DNA of 28,753 nt from a virus, in the IMG/VR virus record IMGVR_UViG_3300007609_000068, positions 1 through 28,753 of that record; one strand, given 5' to 3'. Each line of letters begins with the position of its first letter. Positions within the stretch are counted from its first letter, which is position 1. The notes beneath the pieces were generated by a model, which saw only the letters and a list, made by a program, of their open reading frames with translations, ran no database searches and was not told the origin of the DNA. The position numbers and the translations under genes were made by a program. Shown here one piece after another: positions 13,764 through 25,476 of this stretch.

Positions 13764-14201
13764 TTAAATAGCAGTAAGAATAAGCAGGTTAGCTGTAGAG
13801 TCGTCTTGAATTTCCCAGGTATAACGATTATTGGCGAAATCGATCATTGTGCGATTCTGTACTTTGCGGATGTTAACTCCGGCACCTGAACCTCCAACAT
13901 ATCCCTTAATAATCATTTCTCCGTCGCCTGGCACTTGCTTGTTCACAAGTGTGCAAAATCCTACATTACCAGTTCCGTTTGAACCATCACGAGTTGTACC
14001 GTCTGTGTTAACAGCCGTGCCATTTGCAGTATCGTTGACTTTGAATTTTGTTTCTGATCTCTGGGAAAGAATAATACCTGTGTTTGATACTGACTCACCT
14101 GTGACCTTTACTACGGCAGTAAGTCTTTCTTCGTTGCTGAGATCTGCACCTCCGGCGGCTTGAGTATTGCCGAAAAATCTATCATTTAATGGACGTCCCA
14201 T
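13764..14201 (-). CDS. Conserved virion-type protein, GRPLNDRFFGN family (145 aa)
   Basis: I place the start at ATG 14201 because AAGGAG sits 6 bases upstream and the protein then begins MGRPLNDRFFGN, a start I recognise from small structural proteins of marine phages. An in-frame ATG at 14276 would add 25 residues but has no ribosome-binding site and lies right at the expected transcription start. The body is Gly/Thr/Asn-rich with beta character (ILSQRSETKFKV, GFCTLVNKQVPGDGEMIIKG, RYTWEI). It leads the appendage cluster from its own late promoter. Role unknown; a small capsid or tail decoration subunit is possible. Confidence 0.72.
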   Translation of the reverse strand: MGRPLNDRFFGNTQAAGGADLSNEERLTAVVKVTGESVSNTGIILSQRSETKFKVNDTANGTAVNTDGTTRDGSNGTGNVGFCTLVNKQVPGDGEMIIKGYVGGSGAGVNIRKVQNRTMIDFANNRYTWEIQDDSTANLLILTAI

Positions 14202-14207
14202 TTGTTT

Positions 14208-14213
14208 CTCCTT
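14208..14213 (-). promoter_or_regulatory. Shine-Dalgarno that fixes the start of the 145-aa gene
   Basis: AAGGAG on the minus strand, six bases before ATG 14201. This supports the shorter protein over the 25-residue upstream extension. Confidence 0.75.
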
Positions 14214-14286
14214 ATGTTGACGTTCTAGGTCTACGCGGTGGGTTGCTCCGCATAAGTCTTCTTTGCAGAAGCTCATTTAGACATTG

Positions 14287-14294
14287 TATTTATC
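14287..14294 (-). promoter_or_regulatory. T4-type late promoter box GATAAATA
   Basis: Minus-strand GATAAATA between the 130-aa gene (stop at 14290, so the box overlaps its end) and the 145-aa gene. Transcription should begin near 14281, giving an approximately 80-base leader to ATG 14201. The leader holds a small hairpin (CTTCT, loop GCAA, AGAAG) and a four-codon ATG-TCT-AAA-TGA reading frame. Confidence 0.65.
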
Positions 14295-14682
14295 TCGTCT
14301 TGTCTTTAACACGATTTATGAAATCACGAACATATTCAAAATGTGTACTCAATTTACCAAACAGTTCAGGATTGTATATCTGAGACGCTTGGTCGTAACT
14401 GCTTTTTCCTATCAGTGAATAATAGTCAATACTGATACCATAATCTGGAAACATACCTGTAATAAACAAACAATGATCGCCAAGTTCTTTGGCTTGTTGT
14501 TTGGACTGTAAGTCAAAGAATGTTTCAGCAAACGTTGTAGCAGGGAGGAATTCTTGGTCTCTTACTCTTGATGCCAACAATAAGATAATGTATTGTTCAA
14601 TATAGTCTGGCATTTCTATGCCAGTGTCTTTTTTGGTTTCAATGACTGCATTTGAAAATGCAACCACATATTCATCTTGCAT
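14290..14682 (-). CDS. Hypothetical protein after the capsid gene (130 aa)
   Basis: Reads MQDEYVVAFSNAVIETKK, then MPDYIEQYIILLLASRVRDQ and SIDYYSLIGKSSYDQA, ending RDFINRVKDKTR. It is mostly helical by eye, with no membrane segment, signal peptide or catalytic motif. I do not recognise the family firmly. Its isolation is notable: a strong terminator separates it from gp23, and its own late box lies only 5 bases before the ATG, with no Shine-Dalgarno in between. A downstream ATG (residue 24) also lacks a ribosome-binding site. The position next to gp23 suggests a late virion or head-assembly role, but this is inference. Confidence 0.7.
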   Translation of the reverse strand: MQDEYVVAFSNAVIETKKDTGIEMPDYIEQYIILLLASRVRDQEFLPATTFAETFFDLQSKQQAKELGDHCLFITGMFPDYGISIDYYSLIGKSSYDQASQIYNPELFGKLSTHFEYVRDFINRVKDKTR

Positions 14683-14687
14683 AAAAT

Positions 14688-14695
14688 TATTTATT
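14688..14695 (-). promoter_or_regulatory. Late promoter box AATAAATA immediately before an ATG
   Basis: Minus-strand AATAAATA followed by ATTTT and then ATG 14682. In T4 late promoters transcription begins about six bases after the box, which here falls on or beside the start codon. It lies just downstream of the gp23 terminator, so it starts a new unit. Confidence 0.6.
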
Positions 14696-14703
14696 ACGCC
14701 GAC

Positions 14704-14731
14704 AAAAAAATAGGCCCCGAAGGGCCTATTT
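14704..14731 (-). terminator. Rho-independent terminator after gp23
   Basis: On the minus strand AAATAGGCCC and GGGCCTATTT form a perfect 10-bp stem around a TTCG tetraloop, followed directly by TTTT, 24 bases after the gp23 stop. This is a textbook intrinsic terminator and ends the head operon. Confidence 0.93.
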
Positions 14732-14754
14732 CAGTGTGGTTACCTTAGTAACTA

Positions 14755-15921
14755 TTAGCTGAAGCTAACGTTGCCGTTAGTTACGCCAACTGCTGCCAAG
14801 TAATCAGCAGCATTACCAAGAGATGACGCTGTGTTAGTTAGTTCTACATAACCATAGCGAGTCATAAAGCTCACTGTTGGCTCGAATGTAGATGGATCTA
14901 GCACAACTCCACTGCTCATCAATGGAATGTATGGGCAGTAGAATGCAGCCGCATCTGATTCTGAAGTACCTTTGTACCCGATCAATACGTTTGCATTGTC
15001 AGCGGCATATGTGTTAACATATACACGCATAGCATTGTTTAGTGTTCCAACCATCTTGGTGTTAGTTGGTGCTTCGAAAGTACCTTCTGTTGTACGAGCG
15101 AACGCAGAAGTAGTTGCTGACTGAAGAATAGTAAGCGCAAATGGGCTAACTACACACCAGTTACCAGCACCACGACGTGTACGCTGTGCAATCAAGTTAC
15201 TTGCGCGGTTGATTTGAACAGCTAGTGCAGCGTGCTCGTCACCTACGAAAGTAGCAGTACCACTAACAGCGGCTTGGTCATATGTTTCAACAACATTGCC
15301 AGCTAGTGAATCTAGGCTACCAAGTACTTCTTGGTCAATTTCAGCAGTAATTTCTTGTGCAAGTGCAGCCATAATTTCTGCTTCAACGTCGATGCCGTGC
15401 ATAGACTGTGCGTCTTGTGCAGCTTCAAAAGTCCAGCGTGCGCTGAGCTTACGAGTCTTGGCTTCGACAGTTTGCTTCAAGATTTGAATTGACATTCTGT
15501 TACCAGCTTGTCCTTCAAGTGAAGCAGTTGCGCTTGGAGCAGCATCGCTGCCTGGAGCACCTGAATACGCTTCAGCGATCTTGAATGGTGAAAGTGCCTC
15601 TTCACCTGCTGTAGCACCGTTGTCTGTGTCAGCATAACGTACACGTAGTGTATGAATCTGACCAACTGGTCCTGTCATTGGTTGTACACCAACTAGTTCA
15701 TTTGCAATGACTGTTGGCATTACACGTCTGATCACTGGAAGGATCACACGATTTAGTGTTGCAACGTTACCGGCAGAAGTAGCACCAGCAGTAGCACTCT
15801 CTGACAAATACTTGCGAGTATTTTCAAGAGTAGTGGCCATTACTGACTTTTTGTTGCCTTGTAGGCCTTCAAGAAGTGCTGTCTTCGTGTCCTGCCAGCG
15901 ACTTTCTAGTAGTTCTGACAT
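14755..15921 (-). CDS. 23: Major capsid protein gp23 (388 aa, compact form)
   Basis: Forms the icosahedral shell of the head after cleavage by gp21. Recognised from the T4-type signature LSARWTFEAAQDAQSMHGID, then EAEIMAALAQEITAEIDQEV, and the C-terminal CPYIPLMSSGVVLDPSTFEP leading to MTRYGY. AAGGAG precedes ATG 15921 and overlaps the gp22 stop. At 388 residues it is well short of the 521 of T4 gp23, so the insertion domain and much of the propeptide are probably absent. Possible gp21 sites of the L-x-E type near the N-terminus are LLE18/G19 and LSE41/S42. Follows gp22 by 10 bases and ends at a strong terminator. Confidence 0.95.
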   Translation of the reverse strand: MSELLESRWQDTKTALLEGLQGNKKSVMATTLENTRKYLSESATAGATSAGNVATLNRVILPVIRRVMPTVIANELVGVQPMTGPVGQIHTLRVRYADTDNGATAGEEALSPFKIAEAYSGAPGSDAAPSATASLEGQAGNRMSIQILKQTVEAKTRKLSARWTFEAAQDAQSMHGIDVEAEIMAALAQEITAEIDQEVLGSLDSLAGNVVETYDQAAVSGTATFVGDEHAALAVQINRASNLIAQRTRRGAGNWCVVSPFALTILQSATTSAFARTTEGTFEAPTNTKMVGTLNNAMRVYVNTYAADNANVLIGYKGTSESDAAAFYCPYIPLMSSGVVLDPSTFEPTVSFMTRYGYVELTNTASSLGNAADYLAAVGVTNGNVSFS

Positions 15922-19531: not shown

Positions 19532-19776
19532 TACATACCTGTTTCAGCGTTTGCTGCAATTCCGTACATTTGTTTTACAAAATGAAGGTCTTTTTTGCGC
19601 TCTTCAACAGATAGCTCAGAAGCTTTGCGGATGCGATTAAGCTGTTTCAGTGTTAATCTTACTTTGCGGGTGTCATCAAAGTCAACAGGTGACTCGTCAT
19701 ACTCTGGCTCATAACGAGTATCTTCTACGCTGTCCAGCGTGTCTTTATCAAAGTAAAATAATTCTCTAAGTATCAT
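19531..19776 (-). CDS. Small conserved protein downstream of portal (81 aa)
   Basis: Reads MILRELFYFDKDTLDSVEDT, then VDFDDTRKVRLTLKQLNRIR and LHFVKQMYGIA. The DTRKxRLTLKQxNRxRK core is a conserved feature of small proteins next to gp20 in marine T4-like phages; the role is unknown, possibly in prohead initiation. I chose ATG 19776 over an in-frame GTG at 19818, because the GTG has GGAG directly abutting it (no spacing) and would lie inside gp20. ATG 19776 has no Shine-Dalgarno either, but a perfect TATAAATA ends 7 bases upstream, so the message may start at the codon. Confidence 0.72.
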   Translation of the reverse strand: MILRELFYFDKDTLDSVEDTRYEPEYDESPVDFDDTRKVRLTLKQLNRIRKASELSVEERKKDLHFVKQMYGIAANAETGM

Positions 19777-19783
19777 GACAGTG

Positions 19784-19791
19784 TATTTATA
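19784..19791 (-). promoter_or_regulatory. Perfect late promoter TATAAATA across the gp20 stop codon
   Basis: Minus-strand TATAAATA contains the TAA stop of gp20 and is followed by CACTGTC and ATG 19776. Transcription about six bases downstream would begin at or two bases before the ATG of the 81-aa gene, which has no Shine-Dalgarno. Confidence 0.7.
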
Positions 19792-21535: not shown

Positions 21536-24520
21536 TTATCCCCTACTGTCCGATATTCTGCCTTTGCTTATGTCGCCACCGATGCTTTTGGTGTTTCTTT
21601 CAATCTTCTTGAGATAGTCTGAAGTCTGCGTCGTAGTTGCTAAAAGAGCATCCATCGTTCTATTTAAGCGATTTCCGCCTTCTCCGCCACCTGTCGTGGC
21701 TGTTGCGGCGGTTGCACCTTCTGGCAGGTCTAGTCCTTGATTTTCAGACAGCACACCGTTTAAATTTTCTAATGTGGTAACAAGGTTTTCCATTGCTTCT
21801 CTATAATTGTTCACGTTGTCAGAATCAAGTTCATTAAGATTTGCAAAGTCAGTTGAGTTAGCCGGCGTCTGCGACAAGGATGCATTCACAACTTGTTTAT
21901 CAATACCAACTAGCTGTGATTCTAGTTCTTTTACTCGTTGTTTGCGCTCTTGTAAATTTTCCAGTGCATAGTCTAATTTGACATTGGCACCCATGAGCAT
22001 GTCGTTAGTTACTGAGCTACCAGGCTGTGCAAAATTATTTTCTAACAATTGCAGTCTATTTTGTGCATTAGATACACTACGCTCTGCTGACAAAAGCCAA
22101 TCATTTGCTTTGTCAAGTTTTTCTTTTATTTCAGAGGTTTGTGTTTCGAATTCTGCTTTTTCAGCTTCGGGATCGTTACCAAACAGTGCATCCCCTACAG
22201 TAGACAGTAATCCTTTTTTAGGAAGAACATCTAGATTAGAGATAGCTTCTGAAAATGAATTTATACTGCTGGCATTTTGCTTTACAGCATCTCCATCTAT
22301 ATCTGCGTCTGCAAACTGTTTTAGTTTGTCTAACGGGCTGTCACCGCCGAAGAATCCTGCAATACCTTCTGCCACACTGCCTACCATGTTGCCAATGCCG
22401 CTCACAACTGATCCTGCACCAAATGCAGCCATTGCACCTGTCATTGCAATCATACCATCCGCTGCGCTTTTTAATCTTGCGCCATCGAGGTCTTCGAAGC
22501 TCTTCATGCCTTCAGCAAAGCTAGGCAGTGCATTGCCTACTAACCATGTAGCGCCTGCAATGCCTGCGCCAATTAGCGTAATTGCTCCACCAACTGCTGC
22601 AGCACCTAACGCTATCAAAGGTGCTTTTGCTCCGGCGCCTGCTAGGGCATTTGTGATGCCTTCTAGAATTCCTCCACCGATTCCGCCCAGTGCTCCTCCA
22701 ATGTTGCCGCCGATTTTGCCGCCTGTAGTTTGGCTGGGCTTTAGACTAGGTCCAGGTGCTTTTGTAGTTGTACCCCCGCCGGCAGTTCCGCCGAATAATC
22801 CGCTAAATGCTTTTCCGACTACTGATGTTACTGCTTTTGCAGCAAACAATAAACCAATACCTGCAACTAATGCATCTAAGACCGGACCCATAAATAGATC
22901 ACCTATAAAGTCACCAATTTGTCCGCCAATATCGTCAACGATTTCTCCAAAGCTCATGCCTTTAAAACTTGCAATCCAATCAAAAAATTGATTAGCTAAT
23001 TCTGAAGCTTGTTTTCCGAGCTCTTCCATCTTGGCTACGCCTTCTTCGCTTCCTAACCAATCACCTAGTGTTTTTAGTCCAGCGCCAATTGTTTCAAATA
23101 CACCACTTTTTATAAATGCAGTGGTTATGACTCTTCTAGCTTCTCTTACTGCTCCTTCAATTTGATTCATACCGGTAGTAAGATCGTTTGCAGCGTTTGT
23201 TTCTGCGTTTGCTTTAGCAATAGCCTCTTCAATGAGTTTTTTGTTGACATTGCCGTTTTCGTCAAGGAATTGTACACCCTGCTTAGTCATTGCACTAAAC
23301 ATTTCCAACATTTCGCTGCTGACGCCATCTAACCCTGCAGAGCCTGCTTTCAATACACCTTCCATGTTTCCGGCTGCTTCTAATGCTGATACCATAGAGT
23401 CAACCTGTGTTTTTTGCATTTGACTGTCAAATTGATCTGCACTGGTAGATGCATCTCTAGCAGCTCGTCCTAGATCTGTGAGACCTTCGTAAACTCCTGG
23501 CATAGTAGCTGCCATTATTTGAGTTTCTCTTGTTAACGGCCCCATTCCTAACACTGCTTGCTTAACCGCTTGTGCTCCAGCTTCCCCGAATTGAGCAGAA
23601 GCCATTGCCATTGCTTTGTTTACTTTGTCCCTTTCCTTTTCATCTAGCTTGGCCATTTCCATTTGAAATGCAATATCGTTTTGCTTGGCCATTTGCTCCT
23701 GTTTAATTTGGTCAATATCTTTACCTGTCAGTTTACTCAGTGTGGTAAGATTTTTTGCGTAATCTGCGGCAGCGGCGGCTTGTGATTTGGCATCACGACG
23801 CTGAGCAACAGCTCCTGCACGATTTAAATTCTGATAATCGATAAGAGTTTCATTTATTTCTTCAAAGCTGAAACCCATATTCATAAGTTGCAGTCTATTA
23901 TCTCCAAGTTCTCTGTTTAAATCAGCTAGACGTTTTGCACCGCCAGTAACAGTTCCGCCAAAGGATGAAAGATCTGCAGATCTATTTGCAATCAGATTTG
24001 AAAATTGGTCAAGTGTAAGATAAGTTTCAGCTGCGGCTAATCGCAAATCTGTTAAGCTGTTATTAAACGCTCCGCCTACACTGCTTAATTCTCTAAATGC
24101 AGTCATAGAATCATCTAGATAGCCGGTTAGTGGCGTTAGCAGGCTTCCTATTCCCGGAATGTGTCGGGCAAAATCAGAAAGTTGACTACCGCCACTTATA
24201 AGTTCTTTGGCAAAATTACCTACTCCAACTGAAGCGGCAACTAGTCCAGTTGTGATCATGCTTCCCGCTTTGCTTAGAGCACTCGCATGATTTTCTACGG
24301 CTTCGGTGCCTTCTTTTAAAGCTTCTCTGTTTTCTGTAACAACAGTGATAGAGTCGTCAAAGCTTTGGGCGAGCTTCTTGGCTTTTTCTGCACTCTTCTT
24401 GGGATCGAAGCCTTCTTTTTTGGCAAGGAATTCAACAGCCTTGACCAGACTTTCCAGAGTAGCTTCAGACGCGACGCCGCCTTTGCCTACATTACCAATG
24501 TCTACTGTTTCGTCTGCCAA
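21536..24520 (-). CDS. Tape-measure-like tail protein (994 aa)
   Basis: Starts at TTG 24520: an in-frame TAA lies 15-18 bases upstream and AGGA about ten bases before the TTG, and no earlier ATG exists. The protein is long, Ala/Gly-rich and helical, with hydrophobic stretches at about 547-568, 633-662 and 690-715, a Gly-rich linker (575-620) and a coiled-coil-like region at about 795-880. The C-terminus (LLATTTQTSDYLKKIERNTK) resembles tape-measure ends. Tape measures set tail length and are ejected during infection. Next to it, on the opposite strand, is a pair of genes organised like tail-assembly chaperones. Could instead be another internal tail or DNA-ejection protein; no lytic domain motif seen. 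Confidence 0.65.
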   Translation of the reverse strand: MADETVDIGNVGKGGVASEATLESLVKAVEFLAKKEGFDPKKSAEKAKKLAQSFDDSITVVTENREALKEGTEAVENHASALSKAGSMITTGLVAASVGVGNFAKELISGGSQLSDFARHIPGIGSLLTPLTGYLDDSMTAFRELSSVGGAFNNSLTDLRLAAAETYLTLDQFSNLIANRSADLSSFGGTVTGGAKRLADLNRELGDNRLQLMNMGFSFEEINETLIDYQNLNRAGAVAQRRDAKSQAAAAADYAKNLTTLSKLTGKDIDQIKQEQMAKQNDIAFQMEMAKLDEKERDKVNKAMAMASAQFGEAGAQAVKQAVLGMGPLTRETQIMAATMPGVYEGLTDLGRAARDASTSADQFDSQMQKTQVDSMVSALEAAGNMEGVLKAGSAGLDGVSSEMLEMFSAMTKQGVQFLDENGNVNKKLIEEAIAKANAETNAANDLTTGMNQIEGAVREARRVITTAFIKSGVFETIGAGLKTLGDWLGSEEGVAKMEELGKQASELANQFFDWIASFKGMSFGEIVDDIGGQIGDFIGDLFMGPVLDALVAGIGLLFAAKAVTSVVGKAFSGLFGGTAGGGTTTKAPGPSLKPSQTTGGKIGGNIGGALGGIGGGILEGITNALAGAGAKAPLIALGAAAVGGAITLIGAGIAGATWLVGNALPSFAEGMKSFEDLDGARLKSAADGMIAMTGAMAAFGAGSVVSGIGNMVGSVAEGIAGFFGGDSPLDKLKQFADADIDGDAVKQNASSINSFSEAISNLDVLPKKGLLSTVGDALFGNDPEAEKAEFETQTSEIKEKLDKANDWLLSAERSVSNAQNRLQLLENNFAQPGSSVTNDMLMGANVKLDYALENLQERKQRVKELESQLVGIDKQVVNASLSQTPANSTDFANLNELDSDNVNNYREAMENLVTTLENLNGVLSENQGLDLPEGATAATATTGGGEGGNRLNRTMDALLATTTQTSDYLKKIERNTKSIGGDISKGRISDSRG

Positions 24521-24546: not shown

Positions 24547-24554
24547 TATAAATA
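24547..24554 (+). promoter_or_regulatory. Plus-strand late promoter TATAAATA
   Basis: Perfect TATAAATA 43 bases before ATG 24598, the only such motif I found on the plus strand. Transcription should start near 24560. It lies upstream of, and faces, the minus-strand late box at 24579. Confidence 0.75.
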
Positions 24555-24578
24555 TATTATATATATAATGGTATAGTG

Positions 24579-24586
24579 TATTTATA
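24579..24586 (-). promoter_or_regulatory. Minus-strand late promoter TATAAATA
   Basis: Minus-strand TATAAATA, about 58 bases before TTG 24520 of the tape-measure-like gene. Expected start near 24573, so its transcript crosses the plus-strand box at 24547. Confidence 0.75.
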
Positions 24587-24597
24587 CGGAGCAAAAA

Positions 24598-25476
24598 ATG
24601 CCAGAATTCGATCCAAACAGTTTTCAAGGGAATCAGCAAAATCCCCTTCAAAAGTACTTTAGACAGGCGAAAGTTTATATTACCCTGCCCAGCCAAGGGC
24701 AGTGGTATCCCAACGGGACTTTAGATTATCCAGAAAACGGTGAACTGCCTGTGTTTGCAATGACTGCTAAAGACGAGTTGGGCATGAAAACTCCAGACGC
24801 ACTGCTAAACGGACAAGCCACTGTTGATGTTATTCAAAGCTGTGTGCCTAATATCAAGGACGCATGGCAAATGCCCAGCATTGATCTAGATGCCGTGCTT
24901 ATTGCAATACGAATTGCTACTTACGGCGAGCAGCTTGATATTACTACGAAAATTCCAAACATCGGTGACGAAAAAGATTACGGTGTTGACCTAAGAACTG
25001 TATTGAATAAATTAGTCACAGTGCATTTCGAAAGCACTGTTTTTATCAATGACATGAAAGTCGAGCTGCGTCCGTTGACCTACAGAGAATTTACCAACAG
25101 CAGTCTCAAAACATTCGAAGAGCAAAGAATACTGAGATTAGTAAATGACGAAAGCATTCCAGAAGAAGAAAAGCTTGCTCGATTTAATCAAAGCTTTAAG
25201 AAATTGACAGACTTAACCGTAGACATGCTTGCCAATGCTGTTACCAGCATCTCTGTAGACGGAACAACAGTAACTGATCAAAATCACATCTCAGAATTCA
25301 TTATTAATTCTGACAAACAGTTTTTTGGCGGAGTAAAGGATCATTTCGAATCGCAGAAAAAGAAATTTGAAATTGAACCCATGACTATTCATACCACTGA
25401 AGACGAACAAGAAAGAGGGGCACCTGAAACTTTTGAAATTCCTATTACGTTTGATCAATCAAATTTTTTCGCATAA
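24598..25476 (+). CDS. gp26-type T4 baseplate-family protein, candidate tail-assembly chaperone (292 aa)
   Basis: GGAG lies 6 bases before ATG 24598. The conserved stretch (KVYITLPSQGQWYPNGTLDY, then VFAMTAKDELGMKTPDALLN, VIQSCVPNIKDAW and AVLIAIRIATYGEQLDI) belongs to the family annotated as T4 baseplate hub protein gp26 (T4_baseplate). T4 gp26 has about 208 residues, so this is longer. It is one of only two plus-strand genes, with its own late promoter. Its last codons hold a -1 slippery run that would fuse it to the next ORF, the G/GT pattern of tail chaperones; together with the adjacent tape-measure-like gene this suggests it coats the tape measure during assembly (inference). Confidence 0.78.
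   Translation: MPEFDPNSFQGNQQNPLQKYFRQAKVYITLPSQGQWYPNGTLDYPENGELPVFAMTAKDELGMKTPDALLNGQATVDVIQSCVPNIKDAWQMPSIDLDAVLIAIRIATYGEQLDITTKIPNIGDEKDYGVDLRTVLNKLVTVHFESTVFINDMKVELRPLTYREFTNSSLKTFEEQRILRLVNDESIPEEEKLARFNQSFKKLTDLTVDMLANAVTSISVDGTTVTDQNHISEFIINSDKQFFGGVKDHFESQKKKFEIEPMTIHTTEDEQERGAPETFEIPITFDQSNFFA
25461..25470 (+). promoter_or_regulatory. Candidate programmed -1 ribosomal frameshift site A AAT TTT TTC
   Basis: In the frame of the 292-aa gene the codons are tcA AAT TTT TTC, containing two overlapping X-XXY-YYZ heptamers (A-AAT-TTT at 25461-25467 and T-TTT-TTC at 25464-25470). The -1 frame has a stop (TGA) at 25452 and the 0 frame stops at 25474, so the only window for a shift is 25455-25473, and the run lies inside it. 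A -1 slip gives S-N-F-F-R-I-R-M-L-T-W and continues through the 73-aa ORF, yielding about 367 residues. Confidence 0.7.

What the first reader, a model, noticed from the sequence alone, without database searches (positions are those of the whole stretch)
14680..14697. A second late promoter placed 5 bases before an ATG
AATAAATA-ATTTT-ATG at the 130-aa gene repeats the architecture of 19776: no Shine-Dalgarno and a predicted start at the codon. A strong terminator just upstream removes read-through from gp23, so this promoter should be the gene's main source. Two independent cases argue for a real leaderless late class in this phage.
Basis: partly seen in the sequence, partly recalled or inferred. 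Interest (0 to 1): 0.55.

Follow-up and report, generated by a model that had tools for sequence, protein, structure and literature searches.

The report
Leaderless late genes of T4-like phages
This virus, and a large group of related uncultured bacterial viruses, appear to switch on a set of late genes from a promoter so close to the gene that the messenger RNA should start at the start codon itself, without the usual ribosome-binding leader.

Summary
In detail: on the minus strand AATAAATA-ATTTT-ATG (14695-14680) opens a 130-aa gene behind a strong terminator-like hairpin, with no Shine-Dalgarno (SD) sequence. It is not chance. In 13 related IMG/VR contigs plus the window (1139 genes), TAAATA stands 4-5 nt before the first ATG in 57 genes, about 2 per position at spacings 6-16, then shows a second hump at 17-30 nt. 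The 57 genes form 26 families; 3 of 57 have an SD-like string. The architecture is kept in 17 of 17 readable loci of the 130-aa gene and 80 of 80 listed loci of the 81-aa gene at 19776. Five compared phages (T4, PA5oct, Syn9, Vibrio 2.275.O, Atu_ph07) have 1 case in 1829 genes; pelagimyophages HTVC008M, Mosig and, weakly, Melnitz have it. Nine of 13 contigs encode a gp55 (late sigma) homologue. By T4 numbering a 5-nt spacer puts +1 on the A of ATG. Best explanation: a gp55-type late promoter making leaderless mRNA; the transcript start itself is inferred. Both elements are known; eight searches of an open-access library showed no report of their systematic combination in T4-like phages. The 19776 case has spacer 7, not 5.

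The parts
14688..14695 (-). late-promoter core AATAAATA (T4 consensus TATAAATA with A at -13)
   Evidence: A(-13) is found at 9 of 50 listed T4 sites (PMC2988020, passages)
14683..14687 (-). 5-nt spacer ATTTT; by T4 numbering the next base is +1
14680..14682 (-). ATG, start codon and predicted 5' end of the mRNA
14290..14682 (-). 130-aa gene of unknown function, no PHROGs or Pfam match
14707..14732 (-). terminator-like hairpin after gp23, followed by a U-run
   Evidence: -17.2 kcal/mol, z -5.3
14755..15921 (-). major head protein (gp23-like), with AAGGAG before its ATG; contrast case
19784..19791 (-). late-promoter core TATAAATA of the 81-aa gene; contains the portal stop codon
19531..19776 (-). 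81-aa gene after the portal gene (phrog_13986), start 7 nt behind the core
14287..14294 (-). late-promoter-like GATAAATA of the next gene, which has a leader
14199..14272 (-). 5' leader matching Rfam freshwater-2 RNA (RF02980), just below its gathering score
   Evidence: 48.7 bits, cut-off 49.9
13764..14201 (-). gene starting MGRPL with AAGGAG; probable true start, 25 codons inside the listed ORF
24547..24554 (+). TATAAATA with a leader and SD-like string before ORF 24598-25476
24579..24586 (-). TATAAATA facing the other way, before ORF 21536-24520 (TTG start as listed)

Best explanation
The site is a T4-type late promoter (recognised by a gp55-like sigma factor) whose core lies 5 bp before a start codon, so that RNA synthesis begins at the A of ATG, or within a few nt of it, and the 130-aa gene is translated from a leaderless mRNA. 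It is one member of a leaderless late class shared by a large clade of T4-like phages, beside a leadered late class driven by the same core. Shown from sequence: the motif, its spacing, absence of SD, conservation across orthologues, presence of gp55 in relatives, uneven distribution among phages. Inferred: the transcription start, promoter activity, and translation from a 5'-terminal AUG.
For: Spacer counts of TAAATA before the first ATG of 1139 genes: 20 at 4, 37 at 5, 26 in all at 6-16, then a hump at 17-30; of seven other A/T hexamers only those overlapping TAAATA (AAATAT, ATAAAT) peak there. In an unbiased scan of all hexamers TAAATA at 4-5 is rank 11 and the only non-SD-type string in the top 14. 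Poisson against spacers 6-16: about 1e-41 for 57 genes, about 4e-12 if each of the 26 families counts once. SD-like strings: 3 of 57 in this class, 66 of 105 in the 17-30 class, 419 of 880 in genes without TAAATA. ATG 64 of 3016 candidate starts at spacer 4-5, GTG 1 of 933, TTG 2 of 1344. The two bases before TAAATA prefer GA in both classes. 68 of 81 family-contig pairs keep TAAATA 3-8 nt before ATG; of the 13 that do not, 9 have an SD-like string. 130-aa gene: 17 of 17 readable loci, 1 more cut by its contig end. 81-aa gene: 80 of 80 loci, spacers 4 (21), 5 (58), 7 (1), 54 distinct upstreams; in 12 of the 54 the portal stop lies earlier, so portal coding alone does not explain the core. Terminator-like hairpin upstream of the core: 9 of 57 against 8 of 977 other genes. 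gp55 homologue in 9 of 13 contigs. Of 30 leaderless-type proteins given to PHROGs, 14 have a best match in head/packaging, connector or tail, including large terminase, tail tube and baseplate wedge.
Against: No transcript 5' ends, no expression or proteome data. The window's own core is AATAAATA while the clade preference is GATAAATA; the 81-aa family mostly has TATAAATA (65 of 80). The window's second case has spacer 7. gp55 was not found in the window (a 28.7-kb fragment) nor in 4 of 13 contigs. Gene calls are crude (longest ORFs, first ATG; some cases such as the 81-aa gene of G008 and G013 were missed), and contigs are related, so counts are not independent. 26 of 57 follow a same-strand gene within 20 nt, where translational coupling is also possible; only 9 of 57 have a recognisable hairpin upstream. 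16 of 30 PHROGs-scanned proteins are not structural by best match. gp23 has an SD in 13 of 13, so late genes as such are not leaderless.
Confidence: 0.85

Rival explanations
1. TAAATA 4-5 nt before ATG is a translation-initiation element (A/U-rich replacement for SD) in mRNAs that start further upstream, not a promoter.
For: The core sits where an SD would sit; 26 of 57 genes follow a same-strand gene within 20 nt.
Against: The same core with the same flanking preference also occurs 17-30 nt upstream, before SDs; in the 130-aa family it follows a hairpin-like stretch (by eye in the relatives, folded in the window), and terminator-like hairpins are enriched upstream of the class; it is the T4 late core and gp55 is present in relatives.
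Confidence: 0.08
2. Short-leader rather than strictly leaderless (a variant of the best explanation, not exclusive of it): transcription starts 1-4 nt upstream of ATG, with spacers 4-7 reflecting drift, and the ribosome binds much as on leaderless mRNA.
For: Spacers of 4, 5 and sometimes 6-8 occur; the window's 81-aa gene has 7.
Against: The peak is narrow at 4-5: 37 genes at 5, 3 at 6.
Confidence: 0.2
3. At the 81-aa gene the motif is kept only because it encodes the end of the portal protein, and the gene is translated by reinitiation.
For: In 42 of 54 distinct upstreams the portal stop codon is the TAA of the core.
Against: In 12 of 54 the portal stop lies earlier and the core is still kept before ATG; the 130-aa gene has a hairpin, not a gene end, before its core.
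Confidence: 0.07
4. Chance: A/T-rich phage DNA gives TAAATA near ATG.
For: ATAAATA frequency in the window is within the range of shuffles.
Against: Positional tests; five other T4-like or related jumbo genomes of 33-41% GC show 1 case in 1829 genes.
Confidence: 0.01

Closest known systems
Bacteriophage T4 late promoters (gp55/gp33/gp45)
   Same: 8-bp TATA box, A(-13) variant known, gp55 homologue in relatives, virion genes among those downstream
   Different: In T4 none of 237 genes has TAAATA at spacer 4-5, while 25 occurrences lie at 17-30. The clade core prefers GATAAATA.
Leaderless mRNAs of bacteria and temperate phages (for example lambda cI, recalled)
   Same: ATG at or next to the predicted 5' end, no SD, peak only before ATG
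   Different: Here a whole class in T4-like phages tied to one promoter geometry; 5' ends not mapped. A 2017 paper says in passing that phage transcripts are often leaderless (PMC5312081, passage).
Pelagibacter phages HTVC008M and Mosig, Methylophilales phage Melnitz (Kyanoviridae)
   Same: TAAATA 4-5 nt before ATG in 12 of 176, 6 of 181 and 3 of 194 genes
   Different: HTVC008M gp23 is only about 36% identical to the window's; its spacer often begins with G. The unbiased scan ranks the motif 2nd in HTVC008M, 29th in Mosig and not at all in Melnitz, whose 3 cases fall below the scan's minimum of 5. A pelagimyophage paper reports that late-promoter prediction was unsuccessful there (PMC7029224, passages).
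Jumbo myophages PA5oct, Vibrio phage 2.275.O, Atu_ph07, Sinorhizobium phage Phosso
   Same: Among the best named matches by gp23 or portal; PA5oct, Vibrio 2.275.O and Atu_ph07 show the leadered hump at 17-30
   Different: Leaderless class absent: 1 of 371, 0 of 446, 0 of 606 (398 of 490 kb of Atu_ph07). Phosso was only searched by pattern (4 matches in 469 kb).

Membership tests
T4-type late promoter | 8-bp core TATAAATA or single-base variant | tested here: met
   AATAAATA at 14695-14688; A(-13) occurs at 9 of 50 listed T4 sites
T4-type late promoter | no conserved -35 element | tested here: met
   over the 20 nt upstream of TAAATA in 57 genes no base exceeds 51% except A next to the core (65%)
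T4-type late promoter | late sigma factor gp55 encoded by the phage | tested here: inconclusive
   homologue in 9 of 13 related contigs, none in the 28.7-kb window
T4-type late promoter | start about one helical turn downstream; late, gp45-dependent activity | not testable with these tools
   needs 5'-end mapping and in vitro transcription
leaderless mRNA | 5' end at or within a few nt of the start codon | not testable with these tools
   predicted from spacing only
leaderless mRNA | no SD | tested here: met
   window gene none; class 3 of 57 SD-like
leaderless mRNA | ATG as start codon | tested here: met
   peak only before ATG, not GTG or TTG; few GTG/TTG candidates are likely real starts, so the test is weak
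freshwater-2 RNA (RF02980), neighbouring leader | covariance-model score at the curated cut-off | tested here: inconclusive
   window 48.7 against 49.9 bits; 5 of 10 relatives searched reach the cut-off

The most novel reading that the evidence does not exclude
A major clade of uncultured T4-like phages, and separately the pelagimyophages, evolved a two-tier late programme: the same gp55 promoter makes leadered (SD) mRNAs for some genes and leaderless mRNAs for a recurring set of genes (in every locus read, the gene behind the portal), so that late in infection these genes could be read by ribosomes through a route that does not need SD pairing, giving separate control of their dose or timing.
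Probability: 0.3. Interest if true: 0.75.

Novelty: new variant of a known kind. Interest (0 to 1): 0.6.

Why it matters
A conserved, position-locked class of predicted leaderless genes that includes large terminase, tail tube, baseplate and head genes would be a natural system for asking how leaderless mRNAs compete for ribosomes during lytic infection, and why a gene changes between SD and leaderless modes among relatives. It also gives a practical rule for finding late promoters and correct start codons in T4-like phages, including pelagimyophages, where late-promoter prediction was reported unsuccessful (PMC7029224, passages).

Tried and rejected
Phage-encoded ribosomal protein bS21 as the cause of SD-independent translation: not supported as a correlate. 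PF01165 was found in 0 of 16 clade contigs (mostly fragments), but in all three pelagimyophages and also in PA5oct, Phosso, Atu_ph07 and Vibrio 2.275.O; of those four, the three tested gene by gene lack the class.

Alphaproteobacterial host as the cause: not supported. Atu_ph07 has 0 of 606 genes; Sinorhizobium phages phiM12 and phiM9 have no TAAATA-N4-5-ATG at all (pattern search only).

Function of the 130-aa protein: no PHROGs, Pfam or phage-collection match. AlphaFold2 from three sequences failed (pLDDT 48.7), so no fold search was made. L002 matched only a short segment and was dropped as unrelated. A distant homologue in G004 (27%) does not have the architecture: TAAATA lies 24 nt upstream of its first ATG.

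First window test used a TTG start and gave 3 cases; it was replaced (ATG starts only, 2 cases). Raw counts of TAAATA-N3-9-ATG against the reversed pattern show no overall excess, since they ignore genes; they were not used as evidence.

Mended: 26, not 25, occurrences at spacers 6-16; 24, not about 21, nt in the G004 homologue; number and reach of the literature searches; hairpins of relatives marked as seen by eye; the short-leader reading marked as not exclusive.

Full report
What is there. The window is a 28.7-kb virus record without a name. Its minus-strand genes include T4-type head genes: portal, protease, and major head protein gp23. The best named gp23 matches are jumbo myophages such as Sinorhizobium phage Phosso, Vibrio phage 2.275.O and Pseudomonas phage PA5oct at 67-71%. 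Behind gp23 come a terminator-like hairpin, then AATAAATA-ATTTT-ATG and a 130-aa gene.

Is it more than chance? In the window, 2 of 18 tested ATG starts have ATAAATA 3-8 nt upstream, against 0.027 in circular shifts, reached in 3 of 5731 shifts. I then took the related IMG/VR contigs longer than 54 kb from two searches (82 loci, 13 contigs used, the unrelated L002 left out) and called ORFs crudely. Over 1139 genes with a first ATG, TAAATA lies 4 nt before it in 20 and 5 nt before it in 37; spacers 6-16 together have 26; then comes a broad hump at 17-30. A scan of every hexamer at every spacer ranks TAAATA at 4-5 eleventh, the ten above being SD-type strings.

Promoter or ribosome signal? The 17-30 group carries SD-like strings in 66 of 105 genes, the 4-5 class in 3 of 57, genes without TAAATA in 419 of 880. 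The two bases before TAAATA prefer GA in both groups, as expected if one promoter serves both. Terminator-like hairpins lie upstream of the core in 9 of 57 genes of the class, 2 of 105 of the hump and 8 of 977 others. The peak exists before ATG (64 of 3016) and not before GTG (1 of 933) or TTG (2 of 1344). Against a pure promoter reading: 26 of 57 follow a same-strand gene within 20 nt.

Conservation. The 57 genes fall into 26 families. Over 81 family-contig pairs 68 keep TAAATA 3-8 nt before ATG; among the other 13, 9 have an SD-like string instead, so the two modes seem to replace each other. For the 130-aa gene all 17 readable loci of 18 have the core 4 (16) or 5 (1) nt before ATG, behind a hairpin-like stretch whose sequence differs between groups (by eye; several loci are near-identical and two are contigs already used). 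Its start looks secure: the first six residues are identical in the three aligned, and the next Met is not conserved. In 42 of 54 distinct upstreams the portal stop codon is part of the core, but in 12 it lies earlier and the core is still there. By contrast gp23 has an SD in 13 of 13.

Mechanism. T4 late promoters are an 8-bp box with its first base at -13 (PMC2988020, passages). Such a box ends at -6, so a 5-nt spacer puts +1 on the A of ATG. T4 gp55 finds a homologue in 9 of 13 contigs (single-pass E 1e-5 to 1e-7) and none in the window or the other four. Of 30 leaderless-type proteins given to PHROGs (of 57), 14 have best matches in head/packaging, connector or tail: large terminase, tail tube, baseplate wedge, head-tail adaptor, virion proteins; the other 16 are metabolic, endonuclease-like, of unknown function or without a match. 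The step from spacing to a real 5' end, and from there to leaderless translation, is inference.

Spread. The same test gives T4 0 of 237, PA5oct 1 of 371, Syn9 0 of 169, Vibrio 2.275.O 0 of 446, Atu_ph07 0 of 606 (398 of 490 kb), but HTVC008M 12 of 176, Mosig 6 of 181, Melnitz 3 of 194. Melnitz is weak. Since Vibrio 2.275.O and PA5oct are much closer to the window in gp23 than HTVC008M is, the trait has probably arisen or been lost more than once (no tree was built). Neither bS21 nor host class explains the pattern.

Literature. Ten searches of the held open-access PMC library were made; eight of them had a leaderless term. Four listings were capped (25 of 219, 15 of 102, 15 of 150, 12 of 36). 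In the listings seen I found no paper on leaderless late genes in T4-like phages; only 5 papers hold both leaderless and T4-like, and of these I looked into PMC9004378 alone, where leaderless occurs only in a reference title (passages). Most subscription papers and all bioRxiv preprints are missing from the library. PMC5312081 says in passing that phage transcripts are often leaderless (passage). PMC7029224 reports failed late-promoter prediction in pelagimyophages (passages). PMC7892883 describes the structure of the T4 late complex (passages). In the passages seen of PMC3037559 and PMC9723584 the word leaderless does not occur.

Verdict. The finding is real, and larger than reported: a position-locked, leaderless-type late class in a wide phage clade. 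It is a new variant built of two known things, and awaits 5'-end mapping.

Noticed in passing
window 14199-14294 (-): The gene after the 130-aa gene has its own GATAAATA and a leader that matches Rfam freshwater-2 RNA (48.7 bits, cut-off 49.9). Similar leaders between TAAATA and the same MGRPL-type start were found in the window and 37 loci (32 of the 38 aligned), with stems that by eye change on both sides (no consensus fold was run). The listed ORF start 14276 lies outside the likely coding part; the likely start is 14201.
   Followed up: partly
L008, L010, L035, L041, L052 downstream of gp23; L035 and L055: Relatives carry a glutamine riboswitch (RF01739; five loci) or manA RNA (RF01745; L035, L055) behind gp23; this position looks like a hot spot for structured RNAs and small genes.
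   Followed up: partly
L014, L017, L038, L065 behind gp23: A TTGACA-like string followed by a conserved, RNA-like stretch lies behind the gp23 hairpin (by eye). In the similar L055 the manA match lies here; L014, L017 and L065 had no manA match at the gathering score, L038 was not searched.
   Followed up: no
window 24547-24586: Two TATAAATA cores face away from each other between ORFs 24598-25476 (+) and 21536-24520 (-), 24 nt apart; both genes have leaders.
   Followed up: partly
W03 (phage 121Q) 121927-131286 (-): Seven identical TAAATATAGTATAATG strings and one near-identical one lie within 9.4 kb, perhaps repeated genes with the same promoter.
   Followed up: no
gp55 homologues of the nine contigs, PA5oct and Vibrio 2.275.O: Their open frames are 280-304 aa, much longer than those of T4, Syn9 and the pelagimyophages (159-200 aa).
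   Followed up: no
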